Below are positions 907 to 38,754 of a DNA stretch of 64,000 nucleotides, piece by piece (position 1 is the first letter of the stretch; every line of letters begins with the position of its first letter). The DNA is from Apostichopus japonicus (lineage: Eukaryota; Echinodermata; Holothuroidea; Aspidochirotida; Stichopodidae): NCBI RefSeq assembly GCF_037975245.1, contig NC_092562.1, positions 24,233,554-24,297,553 of the forward strand, given 5' to 3'. A program made the translations under genes and the position numbers. The notes below the pieces were generated by a model. That model ran no database searches. It worked only from the letters and a program-made list of their open reading frames with translations, and had not been told where the DNA came from.

Positions 907-3900
907 TTCCTCCTCAATTGGAGGTCCCCGTATCTCCGTTTGGAAATTTATCTTCGATTCAAGTGAAATGGACGCCTCCGAGGCCACCACATGGGATGAT
1001 TATTCAGTACGACATATGCTATCAGCCGGTGGATGAAAGTCAAAATGAAACCATTTTGGAATGGAATTTATCACAGAGCTCGACTGAAGAATTGACTTAT
1101 CTGATAACAGACTTGGCCCCAAACTCTAACTACTCAGTTAAGGTAAGCATTACATCTGACCCTATTAAGGTTACCATTAGGTTTTACCCCATGAAGGTAA
1201 TTAGCATTACATTTGACTCCATTAAGGTAGGCATTACATCTGACCCTATTAGTATATAAGCACTATGCTTGACCCCATTGAGGTAACCACTATGTCTGTC
1301 CCCAAGCACTATGTCTGACCCCAAGCACTATGTCTGACCCCATTGAGGTAACCCCTATGTCCTATCCAAAGCACTATGTCTGGCTCCATTGAGGTAACCA
1401 CTATATCTTACCCCAAGCACTATGCTTGACCCCATTGAGGTAACCACTATGTCTGTCCCCAAGCACTATGTCTGACCCCAAGCACTATGTCTGGCTCCAT
1501 TGAGGTAACCCCTATGTCTGACACAAGCGTTACGTCATAATTGCAGAATATGTCTTTACCATTCAGTCGCTAAGTTTCTCTACCGTAATATCTACGATCA
1601 TTTACAAAGCTGCATGTAAAATATTTCCAAGAATATTAAACACTTAATCCATCACAATTTGTGGACAGTAAGTCTTATGAACTCATTAAAATTTGCTGCT
1701 GCAATTTGCTGACTGGTTACGAGTGAAATGGGTACCTCATGAGTTTTACAGTCTTCTTGCCAGTCAATGAAATATGAATATTTCTCATCATCAAAGGTTC
1801 GTGCGTATACGTCAGTTGGTTCCGGAGTGTGGAGTCTACCATTGCACAGAATAACAGCCGAAGGAGGTATGTCTGACTTTGTTCAAGATAAAAAATGTAT
1901 TATTTCTTCCCTAATCACCCAAGCTTTGTCATGGTAGACAATGGAGGTTGTTGATTCAACGGTGATCTGAAATTTGATACCAAATCAGTTTTTGGGGGGT
2001 GTGAGAGTGCAATTTGCATATCATCCTAAAATCAGTTTGGGGAGAGTGATTTTTCACGGTCCTCAAAGTGATTTTTTGGCATAGCTATATAACTGCTTGC
2101 ACCCTACATCAGGACGAGGAGCACTTCATGGCATAGTTTTACCAATATTAATCGGGTTTGGTGTAAGCTTAGATCCATTCATTTATATTATATCTGGAGA
2201 CTGGTGGCCAAAAGCCAACAATTGCTTGCAATAGCAATGCTTTCAGTTGACCTCATGAATATGCAGATATGAATATTTCCTTATTCTACAGTGCCTGGTC
2301 CTCCGTCGAACCTCAGAGTGGAAGAAGGAGGATTGACCCACGTGACCATACTATGGGACGTCCCAAGGAAACCTCAAGGGAACATTGGGAGCTACAAGGT
2401 AGGGAAGGGTTGGGGAGGTACGACATTTTCTTTAGCAGTGTGTTATACCCGCATCAGCAAAGAAAAAGCTAAGGTTCGTGGATTATACATAACGTGGTTG
2501 AAAGGGTATAAATACAAGCCTACTGAAATTGTCGTAATTATGTTAAAAGGGTCACAGTAAAAGCTGCGCCTAGAAGTATTACAGAACAGTATTACTGATA
2601 ATTTTGATGAGATGTTTACTGGCATCCTATACATTACATACACAATTTCATGTTACAACCATATCTCGACAGTATGTTGCAGCTACGGAAACCACATTCT
2701 AAGAGGGAATTTCTTGTGATTCTGATTTCCTTTTTCAGACTTATTGTGCTAACAGCTAGTGTTGTAGTACTCAAAAACTACTCGGTACTAGTAGTACACG
2801 AGTACCCCCTTTTTGCAAGTTCTCTGTATACTTGCACACGGTCAAAGCACTCACATGTCAGTACTCGTACTTGTCGTTTAGTAATTGCACTTGGATGCGT
2901 TAAAGTATTGGTTATGGTACTGGATTGTAAGTTCATGGTACGCTTGCTTATGTAAAAAACTGAAATTACAACAGGAAGCTGCATATTAATTTTTTCATCT
3001 CTTTTGGCATTTCTGTACAGTTCTGTGTGATAGTACCATACTCTTGTGTCTCTATTCCAGCAGTATCACACATGTAGTCAAGTACATTGACCAAATACAG
3101 TACACATAGGCTGTACATACTCTACATAGATGAAGAATGCTTGAGTGTTGTACACTGCTAACATACAGAATGATTCGAAGCAGGATTTTGGAAAAGGACT
3201 TGGACGAAAAAGTACTTAAGTGCTGCCCTCAGACACTGGTATTCGGAATATATGTGGTTCTTAAGTACTCGGAACTGAAGTGCTTGGTACTTGATTAAAA
3301 GTAAAATAGACTACAACACAGCTTATAGCAAAATGTATTTTGTTTTTTAATTAGGATAGTCACAATTGCTCAGGACTTAAACAGTCCAAATAAAGAAAGA
3401 GGAAAACAATGAAATCTTTTTTTTCTTTCATTTTCCACTGAAATAAAATATATTGTTAGTGTCTAATTGGCATGTTGGCTGAAAAAAAATAAGAGGTGTT
3501 CCTTCAATGCCTTCATTTGATCAATTGCCATGATATACCTCTTCTGGCAACTGCTTGTTAAATTTGTTAAATTATCACTACAACAAGAAAAAATGTTGTT
3601 TGAATCATTTTAGGATTAATGGAAGAGATTCAACATGCAGTTGTTCTAACCAGTGAAAGTATCTAGTTAAAACCGCTGAGAAAATATTTTATGCAAAGTC
3701 ACACTAACAAATGTTGTTGTCTTGTCCAAAACCATACCATGAAGTTGTCATTGGTCTTGACAGTTCATAACAAGAGCAAATTTAATCGTAAAAGCAGAGG
3801 TTAGACTTAAGCCCGAGCCTATCCAAGCATGATCACAACATCGACATTTAGTTGAAATGCATTCACCTGATGTTTCTCCAGCCTGTTGTGGTCCCAGCCA

Positions 3901-14000: not shown

Positions 14001-17000
14001 ACCAACCCAGTAGGCTACTTGTACTGGTAGGCTGACCTCTATCTTCCATCTCCCAACCCTAACTGATTTGACCTTTATTATCATTTCACTTTATCGTTAT
14101 TTATAACAATTGCATGATTTATAAATTGTGGTATAAATTTCACAATATATCTAGCTGGAAGTCTTGAAAAATGTGGGAAAAAAGAAACTTAATACTTTGT
14201 GTAGTCCTTACTTGTATATAGCAGATGTGGATATCCTAGCCTGCTTTACATACAGGAATTGTCATTAATTCTCAATAATTTACATAAATAAATTAGCAGC
14301 TTACTTTTTGGGCCCAACTTGAATATAAGTATAAATACAGACTTTATTTAGACCACTGCATTAGCCATTTCAGTGTGAACCTGTGCTGAAAAGTGAAATA
14401 TTGTTTTTAAGTACATTATGCTGATAATTTACCTTACCTATGGTTTTCTTTTTCTTGGTCACAAATAGTTTCATGCAGATTTATTTTGATTTTGTGGAAA
14501 GAGCCATTTTTTTGCTTTTTATAATGTGTCCCTCAGGAAGGTCTATTGTCAGGCATAGCTGATAACTGAATAGTGTTTTCATCAGACTTCATTCTTTTTA
14601 CGTTTGTAAATTATTTTGCATTTTTGTAATTTTTTAATTAATTTTAATTAATTTTTTTTTGGGGGGGGGCGGAGTTATAGACTATATTACTAATTGTGTC
14701 TTCTTAAATATACTCAGGTCCAAACAAGGCATCGGTTAAGGATTTCTGGAGGATGGTGTGGCAAGAGAACTGTGGAATAATTGTGATGTTAACAAACGTA
14801 TCCGAAGGAGGAAAGGTCAGTAGTTTGTTATCTCCAACGATAAAGATATAATTTGCTTTTCTTTGCCTTACCGATATTGCATTTTTGCAGGGGAAAAAAT
14901 TAGGAGTGGGGGGAGGGGTGTAACAAAGAATGGTAGCTTTGTTCGAGAAGGAATGATATATATATATAGATTGATCTCAAATCTTAATATAAAGATGATT
15001 GGCATATTTTAGAAGCATATGCAGTTAAGTACAATTTTAATATGGTGATTTATGCAATGCTGTAAAGACTTACCATATCTGACAAAATATGGGAACTGAT
15101 CGCTGAATTGCAGTAAACGTAAGAATAATTTTTGATGGAAAATGGAATTTTTTGACGACTTTCAATGTCGATTTTCACTGTTAAAGGAGGAAATCTCAAA
15201 ATTGTATGGAAAGATTTGCCCACATGATTTGAATGTGGTGTAGCACAGAAATAGAAATTTATAATTGAAAAAAGAAAATTGTCGAAGTAGTACTTTCATT
15301 ACTGAAGATATATGTCGTTTATCTGTTAATATCGTACTACACCTAAAGCTCATAAACAGAAGCACAAAAATGATGATGATTTTTCTGTTTCTTTAATACA
15401 GGGGTTAGATATATATGTATATATTTTTTTCTTTTAATTACCTTTTCAGCGAAAATGTGAAAAGTACTGGCCCGATGATAATCTCAAGTACGGTCATTTG
15501 AAAGTGGACTGTACTAGTTCTGTGGTCTACACTTCATATACAATCAGTACATTCTCTCTCAGCCAGGTAAATCTATAAATATTTATAAAACGTTATACAA
15601 ATAAATCTGTCCATGGCTCATCATAGCTGAGCAAGGGGGTGATGCAAACATTTCAAAAGCATCATGTATTCATTTAGAACACAAGTAACTTTAGGCATGT
15701 TCCATTTTTCAAGAAGAAAAGCTGCAGCAGCTGTTGAATCCCATGCAGCCAGGCTGCGAATCAATGTCAAGCACTAGATGCAAATGCAACGCCTATTGTG
15801 GGAAATGTGGAGCACTATATAATGTACCCTTTGTTTCTATCTCCTCCCCCTTCTTCCTTACCCTGCACCTAGCCCCATCCCACCCCCTCCCCCACCCCCA
15901 AGGTAAGTAGGCTGGCTGCCCTTTTGAAATATTACAACTACACTTTCCCATCGACTAAGTTTCACTGACCTTAAATATGTGATTATTTCTGGAATTGTAG
16001 TGAGCCTACCTCATCCCATTAGTTCTTAAGTATAAACTTGTATTCCTTTCTACTAATGTTAAAAAAAGAAGCAGCTATGTTTGCTGTAGTTGGGATAATT
16101 TTATCATTGACCAAGATAAATGTAAGTTGAGTAGAACAGCTCACTCCGTTAAAAAGAAACTTTTGTGAGTTGCAAATTATGTATTTTTCCCTCTTGATAT
16201 AGGTTGATGATGTGGACCAGAAAATTAAAACTGTAACACATTACCATTTCACTGCTTGGCCAGATATGAAAGTACCAGAGTTTGCTGGACCCATTCTCGA
16301 CCTCCTGCACATGGTCCGAGACAAACAAGCGGAATGGGTCGCCGAGGGTCCTATCGTGGTCCACTGCAGGTAAATACAAGGCACTCTGACAGCTGTGCTA
16401 ATATGTGGGTCTTTAATGATAAATGAGAACCAAATGATTCCTCTCCTAATAGCTGATATGTACAAGGTGGTAAGTTTTAACTATTAGCTATCCAAAACAT
16501 GTCTTGTTGGACTTTATTGATGATTGTATTTGTTTGGTGCTGTAAATGTAATGTATATATCACCATATATGCTTTACCTGTCTCCTTCAACATATTATTT
16601 TCTCATTCTGTAGCTGTTGGGATATAGCATGGCTAGTGTTCATATAAGTCTAATTCAAAATGAGTTCCAGGATACACAAGGACTGAAGGAAATTTTTAGC
16701 TATTTCTATTCTCTGTGGTTAGTGTGATATATACTGTAGACAGAATATAAAAAATAAACAAAAGTTTCTTGAGCATTTGGGTAAATAACGAAAGCACCAT
16801 ACAAGGTGTTTATGTTTAGTCAGATGTAGTTATTAATGTTGGATCTATTAACATGTATTAGAGCATCCTTTATGTTTATGTTTAGTTCATGTTTATGTTA
16901 TGTATGTGTTTATGTTTATTCAAATGTAATTATTAATGTTGGATCTATTAACATGTATTAGAGTATCCTTTATGTTTATGTTTAGTTCATGTTTATGTTA

Positions 17001-20000
17001 TGTATGTGTTTATGTCTATTCAAATGTAATTATTAATGTTGGATCTATTGACATGTATTAGAGCATCCTTTATGTTTATGTTTAGTTTATGTTTATGTTA
17101 TGTATGTGTTTATGTTTATTCAAATGTAATTATTAATGTTGGATCTATTAACATGTATTAGAGTATCCTTTATGTTTATGTTTAGTTTATGTTTATGTTA
17201 TGTATGTGTTTATGTTTATTCAAATGTAATTATTAATGTTGGATCTATTAACATGTATTAGAGCATCCTTTCCCTCAGTCATAATTGAGTGTGTTGTTAT
17301 TCTTTTGGTGGTATTATTATTTTGTGTCATCAGTGCTGGAGTAGGTAGAACTGGGACCTTCATTACTCTGGACGCCATGTTGGATATGGCGGCAGCGGAG
17401 AATAAGATCAACGTGCCTCAGTTTGTCAATCAAATGAGAAAGAACAGAGTCAAGATGGTTCAAGTTGTGGTAAGAATTAAAACCTATAGCCTTAAAAACT
17501 ATCTTTGTTTTCAACTGCTTTTCGAGAGTCACTTAATTTTTCAAATGTGTCTTTGTGATATTTTGAAAGTTTATGCTCTAGAGCTGCAAGTGAAATTGTA
17601 GAAATAACGCTTGTTGTGCTCAACTTTAATTATCGTTATATCGAAGTGTTTTTATAAAATTTGAGGCATTATCTCTGTGTAAATACAGCAGCTTGTTGCA
17701 TGTACAAATTAACTCAACTGATATATATAAACACATCTCAATTTAATATTCACATCAGAAGAAACAAGTCAAAGACTGAAGTGCAATGTTATATGCAAAT
17801 ACTAATAGTAGTTTCACTTGGGCAAACTCCTGGTTGCTATAGCAACCAGGGAAAGATAAAAACGTCTGCCCCGTTTCTTATATGTTAAGTAGGCTTTGTC
17901 TGTTACATTGACCCCAGCTTCATGTTATCGGAAGATCTTTTTTTTTCTTCATTTGATAGCTGACTTTTTCTAGGATGTAAAGCAGAAGTTAAGACAATAA
18001 TGAATTCCAAAGACTAGTAATTAGCTTGAACTTTTTTCTTTTTTTGTTTGTGTTTTTGTTAGCTTGCCATCACTAAAGATAACTGTAGAAAAAATGGCTG
18101 GAAGAATGAATGAACGTATTATCGATAAATACTCTTTGTGTTTTTTTTCCTTCTCTTCATTTTAGGAACAGTACCAGTTTATTTATGACGCACTGGTAGA
18201 ATATTTTGTAATAGGAGTCACTGCCATCCCGGTAGACGAGTTGTCTACCAAAGTCAGCGAACTTAAATCCATTAACAGTGACACTGGCAAGACCCACCTG
18301 CAACAACAGTATGAGGTATGTGTTCTGAAGGAGTGAATTTGCACTAATTTGCACATAACGGGTTAAGGTTTTGGCATAATTAAGAAGAGTCAATGGATGT
18401 TTGACCTAGACAATTAGGCATTAATTTTGGCATATTCGATGCACCTAGCAATTAGTATTATTCTTAATTATCTCTTTGTTTTTTGTTAGCATGTTGACCT
18501 TGTAATCCATGTTTATGATAATCCCACCCCCCCAACACCACACCCTCCCATTTGGAGGGTTGCCATTTGGCACCCAAAATTACAAATTTGGCATTTTTCA
18601 AATTTCACTGGCTGGAGAAGAGTGAATGCTCTGGCCAATCATAACTCCAGGTTGTATATAGGCCTACGTGTCTATATTAAACATTTGACATATTTTACCA
18701 TGTTTAACTCCCCAATTCCGACGAATTCCAAACCCACACAATTCCTACCCAGATACAGGGTCAATTGTCATTAAATAACAATTAATTTGTTTTGGATGAT
18801 TTTTTCACCCAGCTTGGGTCGGTTGCGTCACTGAAAAATTGGCAACCCTGCCTAATATCATGAAAGGACTGCTTACCTGGACTTGTATCTTTGAAGCATT
18901 TGAATAACATAGACTATATTTCCTTTTCAATTATTTTTTTTGGGACAGACCTTAGAACTTGTCACTATCACCCCTCCTGCTGAAAAATTTACAGGCGGAA
19001 ATACAGCGGAGAACAAATGCAAAAATCGATTTCAACACATTTTGCCAGGTAATTAGACCTCGGTCTGGCTTCTTCATGAGAAATGGGTATATGAGTGTGT
19101 GTGTGACTATAATGAAGGTTAGCCATGCTTGCTTTAGGTATCTGCATTGTCTTAGATGTAAATCTTTAATCACTGGCAATGCAAACAAAAGATTTTATTT
19201 GACATAAAGTAGTCAGCTGGTATTCTGCATAGCTTTCTGAGTTCAAAGTGTTTATCTCTCACACATTATATAACAATTTTTTTTTTTTTATATTTTCTAA
19301 AAGAAAAATTTTCTGACAAATATTTTCTTAGGGGGGTGGGGCCAGCCCCCCTCCCCCCGGCCAACTGTCCACATCTTCATGTAAGAAATGCTTTATAATA
19401 TCAACTTCATTCAGGTGGCTATCCATGTTACATTTTAAGCTCATTTTGATACACTGTCACCATAATTGTGTTGATATTCATATTTTAAAAAAATTCAACA
19501 ATGCCATCAACTATTATCTGGCTTCTGTTTATCAAATACATGGATAAATTAATAAAAGTTTCTTTACATGTATGCATGATTGTAAAGCACATCATGGTGA
19601 ACAAGATAAGAGTATACTCCTGTCTATTATGCTGTATAATTTAATTTTGTAATTTAGTCAATTACTTTTGGCGAAATTGATCTGACCACTTCCACAATTT
19701 TGGGGAGAATTGCTGTGACAATACGAGTGCAATTCGAATGAGCATAGCAAAAAAGTGTGATTTTGCTTAATATGTTTTGATTAACTGTTTAATTTATATA
19801 TTCAGTGGACACATACAGACCATACCTTATGACTGATGTCGGAGACAGAGGAAATAATTACATTAATGCTTCATTTTTGAGTGTGAGTTTCACTGTCATT
19901 AAATTTAAATTTTTTTCTTTCTTTCTCTTTTCTGTTTGTTTTTAAATATAATTCCTTTAAAAGACCATAAAACCATTTTGGATTTGCAGTTAAGTAGTGT

Positions 20001-27059: not shown

Positions 27060-29035
27060 CTCATTGTGTGGTTGAAGAGTGACATTGTACCTGATAGAGT
27101 AGCATTTACTGCCATTTAATCATGTATAAATCATGTATAAATCATACATTGTGTGAATATAGAGTGGCATTGTACTTGATAGAGTAGTATTTACTGTCAT
27201 TAAATCATGTATTAATCATGTATATATCATACACTGTGATTATAAAGTGACATTGTACTTGATAGAGTAGTGTTTACTGTCTTTTAATCATGTATAATTC
27301 ATGTGTAAAACGTACATTGTCTGGTTATAGAGTGGCACTGTACTTGATAGAGTAGTGTTTACTGTCATTTAATCATGTATAATTCATGTGTAAAACGTAC
27401 ATTGTCTGGTTATAGAGTGGTACTGTACTTGATAGAGTAGTGTTTACTGTCATTTAATCATGTATAATTCATGTGTAAAACGTACATTGTCTGGTTATAG
27501 AGTGGCACTGTACTTGATAGAGTAGTGTTTACTGTCTTTAATCATGTATAATTCATGTGTAAAACGTACATTGTCTGGTTATAGAGTGATATTGTACTTG
27601 ATAGAGTTTACTGTCATTTAATCATGTATAAATCATACCCTGTGATTATAGAGTGACATTGTACTTGATAGAGTAGTGTTTACTGTCACAGGGGCATATC
27701 CAGGGGGGGCGCAACAGGTGTGCGCCCCCCTATTGGCCGTCACCAAAAAAAAAAGTTTAGCAAAAAAAAAAAAAAATTGATGACGACCTTTATGTGAGAT
27801 GTCGGTGATCGCTCAACCCCCCCCCCCCCTCCCGTATGCTTTATTTTTTGTTTGCCAAAAAAAGGTTCTGGCGAAGTTCGGCGGCATAATAGTTTTAGAA
27901 ACATAGATGGTAATTGTGTTTGTATTATCGCGTAGCACAGGGCGTGTATAAGGCCTCTGGGCTGCCTGAGGGAAGCCCATAATAGCTCCGTGCATAACAT
28001 GTGAGGTTACTCTATCGAGGCAAAAATTTTGACTTGTCCATTCACGAAATTTATTTCTGCTGACCTTTTATGCCTCAAATTTTTTGTGTACAATTTTTCT
28101 TGACCTCGATTTTCAAATTACTAATCATACTTTGCTAACACGATAAGACGTTATTATAGTATTATAGTATTTAATTTTTAGGCAGCGTCAAAACCTCAAA
28201 GATTTTAAATATCTTGCAGATAAAAGCATTCATTATGCCTATGTTATAAATATTTAAGTCATACAATTTTTGTACATTTTTTCCAGATAATAATTAAATA
28301 CGTTAAATTATTTTTTGATAATTGATTGACAGATAATTTTCAGACCATTTTGCTATTGTTGCCAAACTTCATGTTGTAAATCATTGATAAACTAAAGTAA
28401 AATTCATAAATTTCTTAAAGGCTTTGATGGTCAAACTTGGCAATCACCAGATTTCCCAGTCGGTCACAAGTTTTACAAACACTAAGTGACATGCCAGCCA
28501 TACTAAATTGTGCATTTTGTGTCCATTTTTACTGGAAATGTTGCTTATTATTAAGGTCGAAAAATGGATCACATATGGCACCATTTTGCATTTCAGCCCT
28601 TCTTCGAAAGCAAAAATTGTCCACCCCCCATTAGACCCATCCCCCAGGACGGCGATCATTCATGCCTGACGCCCCCCCCTAGTGGAAAATCCTGGATAAG
28701 CCCCTGCTGTCATTTAATCATGTATAATTCATATGTAAAACGTACATTGTGTGATTATAGAGCGACATTGTACCTGATAGAGTAGTATTTACTGTCATTA
28801 AATCATGTATAAATCATGTTTAAATCATACACTGTGTGATTATAGAGTGGCATTGTACTTGATAGATAAGTATTTACTACCATTAAATCATGTATAAATC
28901 ATACACTGTGATTATAGAGTGGCATTGTTCTTGACAGAGTAGTATTTACTGTCATTAAATCATGTTTAAATCATACACTGTGATTATAGAGTGATATTGT
29001 ACTTGATTAGTGTTTATTAATGTCATTTAATCATA
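27060..29035 (+). repeat. 85-bp minisatellite array, split by an insertion
   Basis: Units of about 85 bp contain GTACTTGATAGAGTAGTGTT, TACTGTCATTTAATCATG and a TATAAATCAT or TATAATTCAT segment. GATAGAGTAG-type anchors occur at 27093, 27178, 27261, 27346, 27431, 27516, 27600 and 27666, and after the inserted element at 28776, 28861, 28933 and about 29004. That is about 12 units. The central copies (27300-27600) are the most alike. Confidence 0.92.
27689..28706. mobile_element. 1-kb inverted-repeat element inside the minisatellite
   Basis: The left end is CAGGGGCATATCCAGG. The right end reads CCTGGATAAGCCCCTG, whose reverse complement is CAGGGGCTTATCCAGG, so the 16-bp termini match at 15 positions. 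CTGTCA lies immediately outside both ends (27683-27688 and 28707-28712). Array sequence resumes cleanly after the element. No transposase ORF is seen. The termini suggest a non-autonomous hAT-like element, although the visible duplication is 6 bp and not 8. Confidence 0.85.
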
Positions 29036-30699: not shown

Positions 30700-32560
30700 C
30701 AGTGTGCGTTCAGTGCGGGGGGTCAGGAATCAGCACTTATTCTTTAATTGATAAAAAGGGGAACCAAATTCAAAACCCCAAAGAACAAACTAAACTCTTC
30801 GCAACTACCTTTAAAAATATCTTTACTGTCCCGACTGACTAATTTCAATAACCTCATTAAAGAAGAAATAGACAACTTTGTCCAAAGAAATGCCAATAAC
30901 CTTCTCCCATCCCTCAATGGAATTTTGGATGACCAAAACCCCCTTACCAAACCGATTAACCATAACGAATGGAAAAGGGCAATAAATAAATCAAAAAATA
31001 TTTCCTCTCCTGGGAAAGATAGGGTAATGTACATAATGCTAAAAACTGCCCAGATAACTTTATCAAACTAACTTTACATCTCTTTAACGAGACACTCAGA
31101 ACAGGCTATTTTCCAAAGCCATGGAACATGTGCTTACAATACTGTTACAGTGTTAGTTAAACCAAACAAACCCGAACAAACCCAGAAAACTACAGACCGA
31201 TAAGCCTACTTTCAGCATAGGAAAAATATTCGAAAAATATAATGGGATAACAGAATAAGAACCCACCTAGAAAGCAGTAACCTCTTTAATACCTCCCAAT
31301 CCGGTTTCAGGACAATTAAATCTTCATTAAACCCCATTGCTAGATTAACTGAAGAAATCAAAATAGGATTTAAAAGTAAACTAAACAAAACGGCAGTCTT
31401 CCTTTATGCACAAAAGGAATTCGATAAAACCTGGCATACTGGTCTTAAATACAAATTATTCAAGTTCAACCTCCCAGAAAATATCACCAGGCTCCTTTCT
31501 TCTTATTTAACTAACCGGTTTATGTAAATTAAGTACAATTCAATCCATTCTGATCCTTTCATTCTAGAAGCTGGCACTCCCCAAGGCTCAGTACTAAGTC
31601 CTCTACTATATACTCATATGTAAACGACCTACCCACTAATAAAGTCAGTAATACCAAAATTAGCTTCTCGGCTTTTGCCTAAGGTCATGTGTAGTATCTG
31701 TTCCCTTTCGAGGGGAATGGTAATGCACGCCCGACGATGATCACACAGTCACAGTCCCCGATGCAAGGGGACTGGGGTTGAGAGCGGATCCGAGTCGTTT
31801 GGTAGTTTGGTTTTCGTCCCCAGGTTCTTTCCTGGGCGATTTTTTCTTAAAAAGTAGTACTACCAAAATTAGCCAATTCGCCGACGATATAGCAATGTCA
31901 TGGAACACTTGTAAAACAGACGTTAAATTATCTGCAAAACTCAACTTATATAATAGAAGAGTGGTGTTACCAATGGCGAATAAAAATAAACCCAATTAAG
32001 AATAAATTCATGATTTTCGAATACCTTTTTTGTAGAAACAAAATAAAAACCAAGGCAATCAACTTTTTAATCATACAATAACTAATAGTAATGAAGCTAC
32101 TTTTCTAGGCGTAACAACTGATACAGAACTAAAATATAAAACTCATATATATAAAGTTGCGGGGATAGCATTGAGAACCCTTAAGACCCTAAGAATATTA
32201 AGCAATATAAACATATTAAGGGCCGAAACTCTCCTCAAAATCTACCACGCCAAAATCAAACCTATTCCTTTGTATGGTAGTTTCGCTTTTATTAGCTCTC
32301 CGTATTTTAAAAAAAAATAGCACATAACTCTGCCTACCGTATCTGCCTCAAACCCAAAGATTTACTTCCAATAAAGAACTCTACGAAATTGGCAAAACAC
32401 CCAGCATTAATATTACTATCAAAATCTTGAACACCAAACTCCTAAAAAATAACATGACCCTCTAATCAAAAATCTGCTCTTCGATCATTTAATCTCTATA
32501 TACTACCCATTCTAAAATTAAATCAAGTATAATTATAAGTACCCTGGATATCCTTAAGTT
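30700..32560 (+). pseudogene. Decayed non-LTR retrotransposon reverse transcriptase
   Basis: Pieces of one reverse-transcriptase ORF appear in order across several frames: LIDKKGNQIQNPKEQTKLFA (about 30745), a SSPGKDRVMY segment (about 31005), FNETLRTGYFPKPW, ENYRPISLLS (about 31190), QSGFR, AGTPQGSVLSPLLY (31570-31615), VNDLP, and the catalytic FADD box (QFADDIAMSW, about 31876). Stops and frameshifts are frequent, so it is not functional. The style is that of a Jockey/I-like element, but the clade is a guess. A SINE-like insertion (31663-31850) separates VNDLP from FADD. Confidence 0.88.
31663..31850 (+). mobile_element. SINE-like insertion with a U2 snRNA-derived head
   Basis: Bases 31663-31702 match the first 45 or so nucleotides of U2 snRNA (GCTTCTCGGCTTTTGCC, then GTGTAGTATCTGTTC), with about five differences and one missing base. 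The following 140 bp are unrelated to U2 and include the hairpins AGTCCCC/GGGGACT and CCCAGG/CCTGGG. The 3' end is T-rich. The insertion is flanked by a direct repeat of about 23 bp (31641-31664 and 31851-31873, both ending TACCAAAATTAGC) and interrupts the LINE reading frame exactly between TKIS and the FADD box. A LINE-mobilised SINE with an snRNA head explains all of this; such SINEs are known in other animals. Confidence 0.85.

Positions 32561-34866: not shown

Positions 34867-38754
<3,888 letters not shown>

What the first reader, a model, noticed from the sequence alone, without database searches (positions are those of the whole stretch)
31641..31873. SINE with a U2 snRNA-derived head inserted into a LINE reverse-transcriptase gene
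Forty bases (31663-31702) match the 5' end of U2 snRNA, including the branch-site-pairing GTGTAGTATCTGTTC. They are fused to about 140 bp of unrelated, hairpin-rich sequence and flanked by a target duplication of about 23 bp. Removing the insert plus one duplicate restores continuity between VNDLP...TKIS and QFADDIAMSW of the LINE. SINEs with snRNA heads are rare compared with tRNA- or 7SL-headed ones, so this may be a new family in this lineage.
Basis: partly seen in the sequence, partly recalled or inferred. Interest (0 to 1): 0.75.

Follow-up and report, generated by a model that had tools for sequence, protein, structure and literature searches.

The report
U2-headed SINE in sea cucumber
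A short jumping element whose front end is copied from the U2 splicing RNA is present in more than a thousand copies in what is almost certainly the Japanese sea cucumber genome, probably a separate origin of a rare class of elements described earlier in crocodilians.

Summary
Window 31660-31856 carries the 5' end of U2 snRNA fused to ~150 nt of unrelated, hairpin-rich sequence, with a 17/18 target duplication, inside a decayed LINE gene. Matches lie on each of contigs C1-C23. In two selected sets, copies average 1.6-4.4% from consensus (by set and region), many have their own duplications (24 of 36 and 10 of 20; re-paired-flank controls 3-4%), nearly all end in one non-poly(A) tail, and linked sites show subfamilies. 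The consensus head equals the host's U2 from nt 4 to 45. Assembly figures point to Apostichopus japonicus. So it is a real SINE family with a U2-derived head. The kind is known (SINEU, Kojima 2015, not held); the listings I saw show none in an invertebrate. Not found: the partner LINE, the body's origin, a Pol III promoter above chance. Side effect: 14 of 20 copies tested reach Rfam's U2 cut-off, so U2 gene counts here may be inflated.

The parts
31647..31664 (+). 5' target site duplication (gapped version starts at 31641); its last bases ATTAGC resemble the U2 5' end (AT.GC), possibly a 5' microhomology
   Evidence: 17/18 to 31856-31873
31660..31703 (+). U2 snRNA-derived head: stem I and the branch-site-recognition stretch GTGTAGTATCTGTTC
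   Evidence: Rfam U2, 32.1 bits; family consensus identical to host U2 nt 4-45; here the window copy has a 1-base deletion, G>C and A>G
31703..31715 (+). junction hairpin CCCTTTCGAGGGG; head-body boundary at 31703/31704
   Evidence: junction motif 1,223 times in the genome; fold of the consensus
31704..31818 (+). SINE body, no Rfam match at a family's cut-off and no U2 similarity
   Evidence: body of the family copies
31819..31856 (+). 3' tail: stem-loop CCCAGG-TTCTTT-CCTGGG, then CGATTTTTTCTTAAAAAGTA (family consensus CGACTTTTTCTTAAAAAGTA); not poly(A)
   Evidence: tail-only insertion with its own long duplication at L086
31856..31873 (+). 3' target site duplication (its first A is shared with the tail)
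31243..31664 (+). decayed LINE reverse-transcriptase gene upstream of the insert (target)
   Evidence: RVT_1 E 3.3e-6, 27.4 bits, below the curated 29.6; reading frames with stops
31874..32310 (+). continuation of the LINE gene after the insert (QFADDIAMSW...)
   Evidence: reading frames; no Pfam match of its own

Best explanation
This is one copy of a SINE family of 192-195 bp in what is almost certainly the sea cucumber Apostichopus japonicus. Its 5' head is the 5' end of the host's own U2 snRNA (to nt 45), joined to a structured body and to a 3' tail made of a stem-loop plus ACTTTTTCTTAAAAAGTA. Shown: a multi-copy family, a common head-body junction, separate target duplications, 5'-truncated copies, subfamilies, and apparent insertion into older copies of itself. 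Inferred: an RNA that starts at the U2 +1 site is copied by target-primed reverse transcription with the protein of a LINE that recognises the stem-loop tail. The source copies themselves change and spread, because linked diagnostic sites are inherited. The U2 head was probably gained when a reverse transcriptase switched template from the body RNA to the 5' end of U2, or through RNA ligation. How the RNA is transcribed is open: no U2 upstream sequence was seen next to the copies compared, and no Pol III boxes stand out.
For: 1,223 junction matches against 0 in the reversed-pattern control. Target duplications: 29 of 41 rows score 9 or more against 13 of 397 re-paired flanks; without the five rows whose match is the tail of a neighbouring copy, 24 of 36; leaving aside also five whose match lies 10 or more bases from a junction, 19 of 36. 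Second set: 10 of 20 (8 of 20 by that stricter reading) against 14 of 375. Target base before the duplication is A in 27 of 29 (56 loci given, 34 passed, 5 with extra bases dropped; partly shared with the tail's last base). Head identical to host U2 nt 4-45, including the host's CAT where the Rfam consensus has CAA. Linked sites 116/136, Fisher p 8.8e-07, and 116/173, p 0.0018, of ten site pairs tested. Tail-only insertion L086 with a 26-base match holding one mismatch, of which TA and CCCA are also element ends. RNA fold z -4.30, 0 of 200 shuffles as stable. Host: 671,581,487 bases, 35 contigs, echinoderm mitochondrial code, against 671.6 Mb, 34 scaffolds, 23 chromosomes of 18.21-46.02 Mb in PMC10344927 (passages).
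Against: No LINE with the same tail was found: the 15 hits of the hairpin pattern are SINE copies or tail-only pieces (their upstream ORFs were printed for eight loci but not searched against Pfam), and the terminal-tail pattern gave fewer hits than its control (179 against 261; 100 listed, none fetched). Box A and box B scans are not above shuffles (1868-1995 of 2000 base shuffles do as well). Twelve of 41 rows and half of the second sample lack a duplication of score 9 or more. Transcription was not tested. The first set holds the best matches to the window copy and the second was chosen for an exact junction, so both understate divergence.
Confidence: 0.95

Rival explanations
1. One-off chimeric retropseudogene: a single event in which a LINE switched template from some RNA to U2.
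For: Such chimeras exist: LINE-1 fusions with U1-U6 snRNAs in mammals (passages of PMC13174262). No other copy lies in the window.
Against: 1,223 genomic places share the junction within three mismatches, with linked subfamily sites.
Confidence: 0.01
2. Many independent U2 fusions to the same abundant body RNA, so that the copies are parallel retropseudogenes and not a self-perpetuating SINE lineage.
For: U2-like 5' ends with other junctions exist: 193 hits against 5 in the control, though many listed are true U2 genes or SINE variants. Of five fetched, three (L138-L140) have another junction, GTTCTTTCAGGG, on the same body, L137 has a diverged body, and L141 only a U2-like stretch.
Against: The dominant junction is shared by over a thousand copies and linked diagnostic sites are inherited. 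Of eight inspected of 37 body hits with an unusual junction, five are U2-headed and three have unrelated, mutually different upstream sequence, which I read as 5' truncation.
Confidence: 0.06
3. A diverged U2 snRNA gene or pseudogene family.
For: 14 of 20 copies tested (of 39 loci fetched from the best matches) reach Rfam's U2 cut-off of 46 bits.
Against: Similarity to host U2 stops at nt 45; the remaining ~150 nt are unrelated. The 46 U2 places scored lie in a C16 tandem array (42) and at four C15 places. None of 117 loci compared (L002-L008 repeat L009-L015) carries U2 upstream sequence.
Confidence: 0.02
4. Satellite or non-autonomous DNA element that spreads by duplication or transposase.
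For: Head-to-tail arrays exist (L027, L028, L042, L079), as does a run of eight same-strand copies on C5.
Against: Most listed copies are dispersed singles with duplications of varied length, and the 5' end varies while the tail is kept; at L029 the duplication is the tail of the neighbouring copy, as if one had inserted into the other. No inverted repeat of 10 bases or more was found in the window copy.
Confidence: 0.02

Closest known systems
SINEU (snRNA-headed SINEs; Kojima 2015, Genome Biol Evol 7:1702; paper not held, known here through passages of citing papers; crocodilian host and details recalled)
   Same: Head from the 5' part of a U1/U2 snRNA joined to an unrelated body, short, dispersed.
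   Different: Host is an echinoderm; no crocodilian sequence was at hand to compare bodies. Recalled: the crocodilian families were linked to Tx1 LINEs and a Mariner target preference; here the only target signal seen is an A before the duplication and the partner is unknown. PMC8010984 words the hosts of snRNA- and 28S-headed SINEs together as avian, crocodilian and mammalian.
snRNA-LINE-1 chimeric retrocopies (mammals; PMC13174262, passages)
   Same: snRNA fused to another sequence in one retrotransposition event with target duplications.
   Different: U6/LINE-1 fusions are described there as independent events that usually do not spread further; here one junction is shared by over a thousand copies.
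tRNA-, 7SL- and 5S-headed SINEs (SINE2, SINE1, SINE3)
   Same: Head-body-tail plan; LINE dependence inferred here.
   Different: SINE heads are said to serve mainly as internal Pol III promoters (PMC7245038, passage); no box A/B above chance was seen here.
Utopia LINEs (U2-gene-targeting; PMC4640811, abstract start, passages)
   Same: Also joins non-LTR retrotransposons to U2.
   Different: Utopia inserts into U2 genes; this element carries U2 sequence and lies at dispersed sites.

Membership tests
SINE | Short dispersed family with a common 5' end and tail | tested here: met
   matches on each of C1-C23; in the second set 18 of 20 alignments reach the last consensus position, the others stop at 185 and 136
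SINE | Copies flanked by their own target duplication | tested here: met
   29 of 41 rows (24 of 36 without tandem rows) and 10 of 20, against 13 of 397 and 14 of 375 re-paired flanks; the rest not recognisable at this score
SINE | Tail shared with a partner LINE | tested here: inconclusive
   no LINE found with patterns that exclude intact SINE copies; diverged tails would be missed
SINE | Pol III internal promoter and transcript | tested here: inconclusive
   motif scan not above shuffles; no RNA data
SINEU (snRNA-headed class) | Head derived from the 5' end of U1 or U2 snRNA | tested here: met
   consensus identical to host U2 over nt 4-45, 42 of 42; the ATC before it is the commonest reading and was prepended by me
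SINEU (snRNA-headed class) | Common descent with crocodilian SINEU families | not testable with these tools
   no crocodilian sequence at hand; the head carries the host's own CAT variant, which suggests a separate origin
SINEU (snRNA-headed class) | Mobilisation by Tx1 LINE with Mariner target preference (recalled) | not tested
   partner unknown; A precedes the duplication in 27 of 29
U2 snRNA gene (RF00004) | Full U2 sequence and structure | tested here: not met
   no clear similarity after nt 45, although 14 of 20 copies pass the family cut-off

The most novel reading that the evidence does not exclude
snRNA-headed SINEs arose a second time, in echinoderms, from the host's own U2 gene, and the U2 5' end is kept for a function in mobilisation (for example a U2-like start site, cap or snRNP contact) and not as a Pol III promoter. 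An older layer with a junction further into U2 (L137-L140) would mean that the lineage has changed its head-body junction over time.
Probability: 0.35. Interest if true: 0.7.

Novelty: new member of a known kind. Interest (0 to 1): 0.5.

Why it matters
snRNA-headed SINEs are a rare class, described from crocodilians. A young-looking, abundant U2-headed family in an echinoderm would show that the class can arise repeatedly, and it gives a tractable case for asking how a SINE without an evident Pol III promoter is transcribed. In practice, 14 of 20 tested copies pass Rfam's U2 cut-off, so U2 gene counts in this genome may be inflated by a transposon: PMC10344927 reports 996 splicing snRNAs found with Rfam, and a SINE total of 159,644 bp, less than this family alone would occupy if its 1,223 junction copies are near full length (1,223 x 192 = about 235 kb).

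Tried and rejected
LINE partner: patterns that demand non-SINE letters upstream of the tail (15 hits, which on inspection are SINE copies with indels or tail-only pieces; 179 hits against 261 in the control). Other heads on the same body (37 hits; of eight inspected, five are U2-headed and three have unrelated, mutually different upstream sequence, read as 5' truncation; 29 not inspected). A master copy behind a U2 promoter: the C15-type promoter occurs at only four places, all U2 genes, and 117 loci show no U2 upstream sequence; the C16-type promoter was not searched genome-wide. Pol III boxes. Plasmid records and viral contigs (no match). Other U2-like fusions. A search with L137 (45 matches, 40 of 949 candidates scored) shows relatives of its body at 72-86%, of which those near 77-80% over 120-230 are probably ordinary copies; I could not fetch them, so an older layer is only suggested. 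Seven rows (L029_662, L028_176, L027_551, L027_229, L042_301, L042_497, L042_686) of 48 were dropped before the counts; L042_301 is nearly full-length, the others are partial or tandem. L002-L008 were left out as duplicates of L009-L015. One search failed half-way through a script error and was redone.

Full report
What is in the window. At 31660-31703 the sequence follows U2 snRNA from its first positions to GTGTAGTATCTGTTC, with one gap (Rfam U2, 32.1 bits, E 9.1e-5 in a 501-base search; below the curated cut-off of 46). It is followed by ~115 nt of unrelated sequence and by a tail with a 6-bp stem-loop and TTTTTTCTTAAAAAGTA. An 18-bp repeat (17/18) flanks it. Taking out the insert and one repeat rejoins a reading frame (VNDLPTNKVSNTKIS-QFADDIAMSW) of a LINE gene with many stops. 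One of three peptides tested matches RVT_1 with E 3.3e-6, 27.4 bits against a curated 29.6; the peptide across the join matches nothing in Pfam. There is no second copy in the window.

Family. The window lies at C2:24233554-24297553 of a 671,581,487-base genome in 35 contigs. A search with the element gave 46 matches (40 candidates scored of 1,967 in a first look), 39 of them besides the window's own at 92-94% and nearly full length. Matches to the element or its body are listed on each of C1-C23 over. The pattern GTGTAGTATCTGTTC|CCTTTCGAGGGGAATGG with up to three mismatches occurs 615 + 608 times, and 0 + 0 times read backwards. Thirty-nine loci were fetched; with the window copy they gave 48 rows, of which seven were dropped and 41 aligned. 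The 41 differ from the consensus by 1-18 substitutions in 192 positions; the window copy has 15 plus three gap columns, second highest. A second set of 20 copies with an exact junction (16 of the 17 C1 places and the first 4 of 10 C6 places listed) lies at 2.4-4.4% from the consensus by region, against 1.6-2.5% for 40 loci of the best-matching set. Both sets are selected, so neither is an unbiased age.

Target duplications. A duplication score of 9 or more was reached by 29 of 41 rows, against 13 of 397 re-paired flanks. In five of these rows (L027 two, L028 two, L029 one) the match is the tail of a neighbouring copy; without them it is 24 of 36. In five more (L011, L015, L019, L035, L046) the match lies 10 or more bases from one junction; without counting those it is 19 of 36. 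In the second set it is 10 of 20 against 14 of 375; two of the ten (L090, L095) lie 10 or more bases off, and six others have 7-8 bases at the right place. The base before the duplication is A in 27 of 29 (56 loci given, 34 passed, five with extra bases dropped), which cannot be told apart from the tail's last A. A copy with only the last 38 nt (L086) has a 26-base match with one mismatch, of which TA and CCCA are also ends of the element; L075 shares its upstream sequence and is probably the same insertion duplicated.

Head. The 46 host U2 places scored (of 40,968 first-look candidates) lie in a tandem array on C16 (42 places, 31.015-31.156 Mb, often 645 bp apart) and at four places on C15. 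The SINE consensus equals host U2 from nt 4 to 45 (42 of 42), including AAGATCATGTG where the Rfam consensus has AAGATCAAGTG, and has no clear similarity beyond nt 45. The ATC that completes nt 1-3 is the commonest reading in the alignment but falls below the consensus threshold; I prepended it. So the head comes from this lineage's own U2. Of 20 copies scanned (of 39 loci fetched), all 20 match Rfam U2 at E below 1e-4 and 14 reach the cut-off of 46 bits.

Subfamilies and history. Sites 116 and 136 are linked (31/10/1/16, p 8.8e-07), and 116 and 173 (p 0.0018), of ten site pairs tested. A pattern for U2 5' ends not followed by CCTTTC gave 193 hits against 5 in the control; many of the 100 listed are SINE variants or true U2 genes. 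Of five fetched, three (L138-L140) are the same SINE with junction GTTCTTTCAGGG, which follows U2 a few bases further; one (L137) is a diverged relative with U2 similarity to nt 54; one (L141) has only a U2-like stretch. An older layer is therefore suggested, not shown.

How it works. Shown: copying with target duplications, 5' truncation, a constant 3' tail, subfamilies, and apparent insertion into older copies. Inferred: target-primed reverse transcription by a LINE protein that recognises the tail, and head gain by template switching or RNA ligation, the two routes discussed for U6-LINE-1 chimeras (PMC13174262, passages). The consensus RNA folds far better than shuffles (-75.8 kcal/mol, z -4.30). 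Not found: the partner LINE, Pol III boxes above chance, or a copy behind a U2 promoter.

Host. COX1 on the 16,099-base contig C35 reads TGA as W and fits the echinoderm code (MNLSRWLFSTNHKDIG). Contig lengths (C16 46.04 Mb, C23 18.20 Mb, C4 29.64 Mb) and the total agree closely, though not to the base, with the A. japonicus assembly of PMC10344927: 671.6 Mb, 34 scaffolds, 23 chromosomes of 18.21-46.02 Mb, N50 29.65 Mb (passages). The identification is an inference.

Known or new. SINEs with snRNA heads are a named class (SINEU; passages of PMC5753468, PMC8010984 and PMC7245038). Kojima 2015 itself was not held, so the crocodilian details are recalled; PMC8010984 words the hosts of snRNA- and 28S-headed SINEs together as avian, crocodilian and mammalian. 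Ten literature searches of open-licence PMC papers, several with capped listings (25 of 436, 15 of 550, 20 of 115), showed no title or abstract start on an snRNA-headed SINE in an invertebrate or on a SINE family of A. japonicus; Repbase and subscription papers were not searched. I file it as a new member of a known kind, probably of separate origin.

Noticed in passing
genome-wide; L009-L026, L030, L031: Copies of this SINE reach Rfam's U2 cut-off (14 of 20 tested), so U2 gene counts in this assembly (996 splicing snRNAs reported in PMC10344927) may be inflated.
   Followed up: partly
L079 444-2247; L027; L028; L042: Head-to-tail arrays of whole and truncated SINE units, some looking like insertions into the tail of an earlier copy; nine separate matches in L079.
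   Followed up: partly
G000:C5:11042410-11066015: Eight same-strand SINE copies 3-4 kb apart, probably a tandem segmental duplication.
   Followed up: no
G000:C16:31015207-31155899: Host U2 genes in a tandem array with many 645-bp steps; C15 holds four more with a different upstream region.
   Followed up: partly
L137 26-258: Diverged relative of the SINE with U2 similarity to nt 54 and a different middle; may mark an older family.
   Followed up: partly
G000:C29:14745-31219: Broken and repeated COX1 pieces on another contig, either nuclear copies of mitochondrial DNA or a misassembled mitochondrial contig.
   Followed up: no
window 918-1259, 17236-17601, 35835-36200: Exon-like ORFs with fibronectin III, protein-tyrosine phosphatase and zinc-knuckle matches (three of five peptides tested); the first two may belong to one receptor phosphatase gene.
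   Followed up: no
window 27062-27688 and 28707-29034; 16806-17271: Tandem arrays of about 85-bp and 100-bp units.
   Followed up: no
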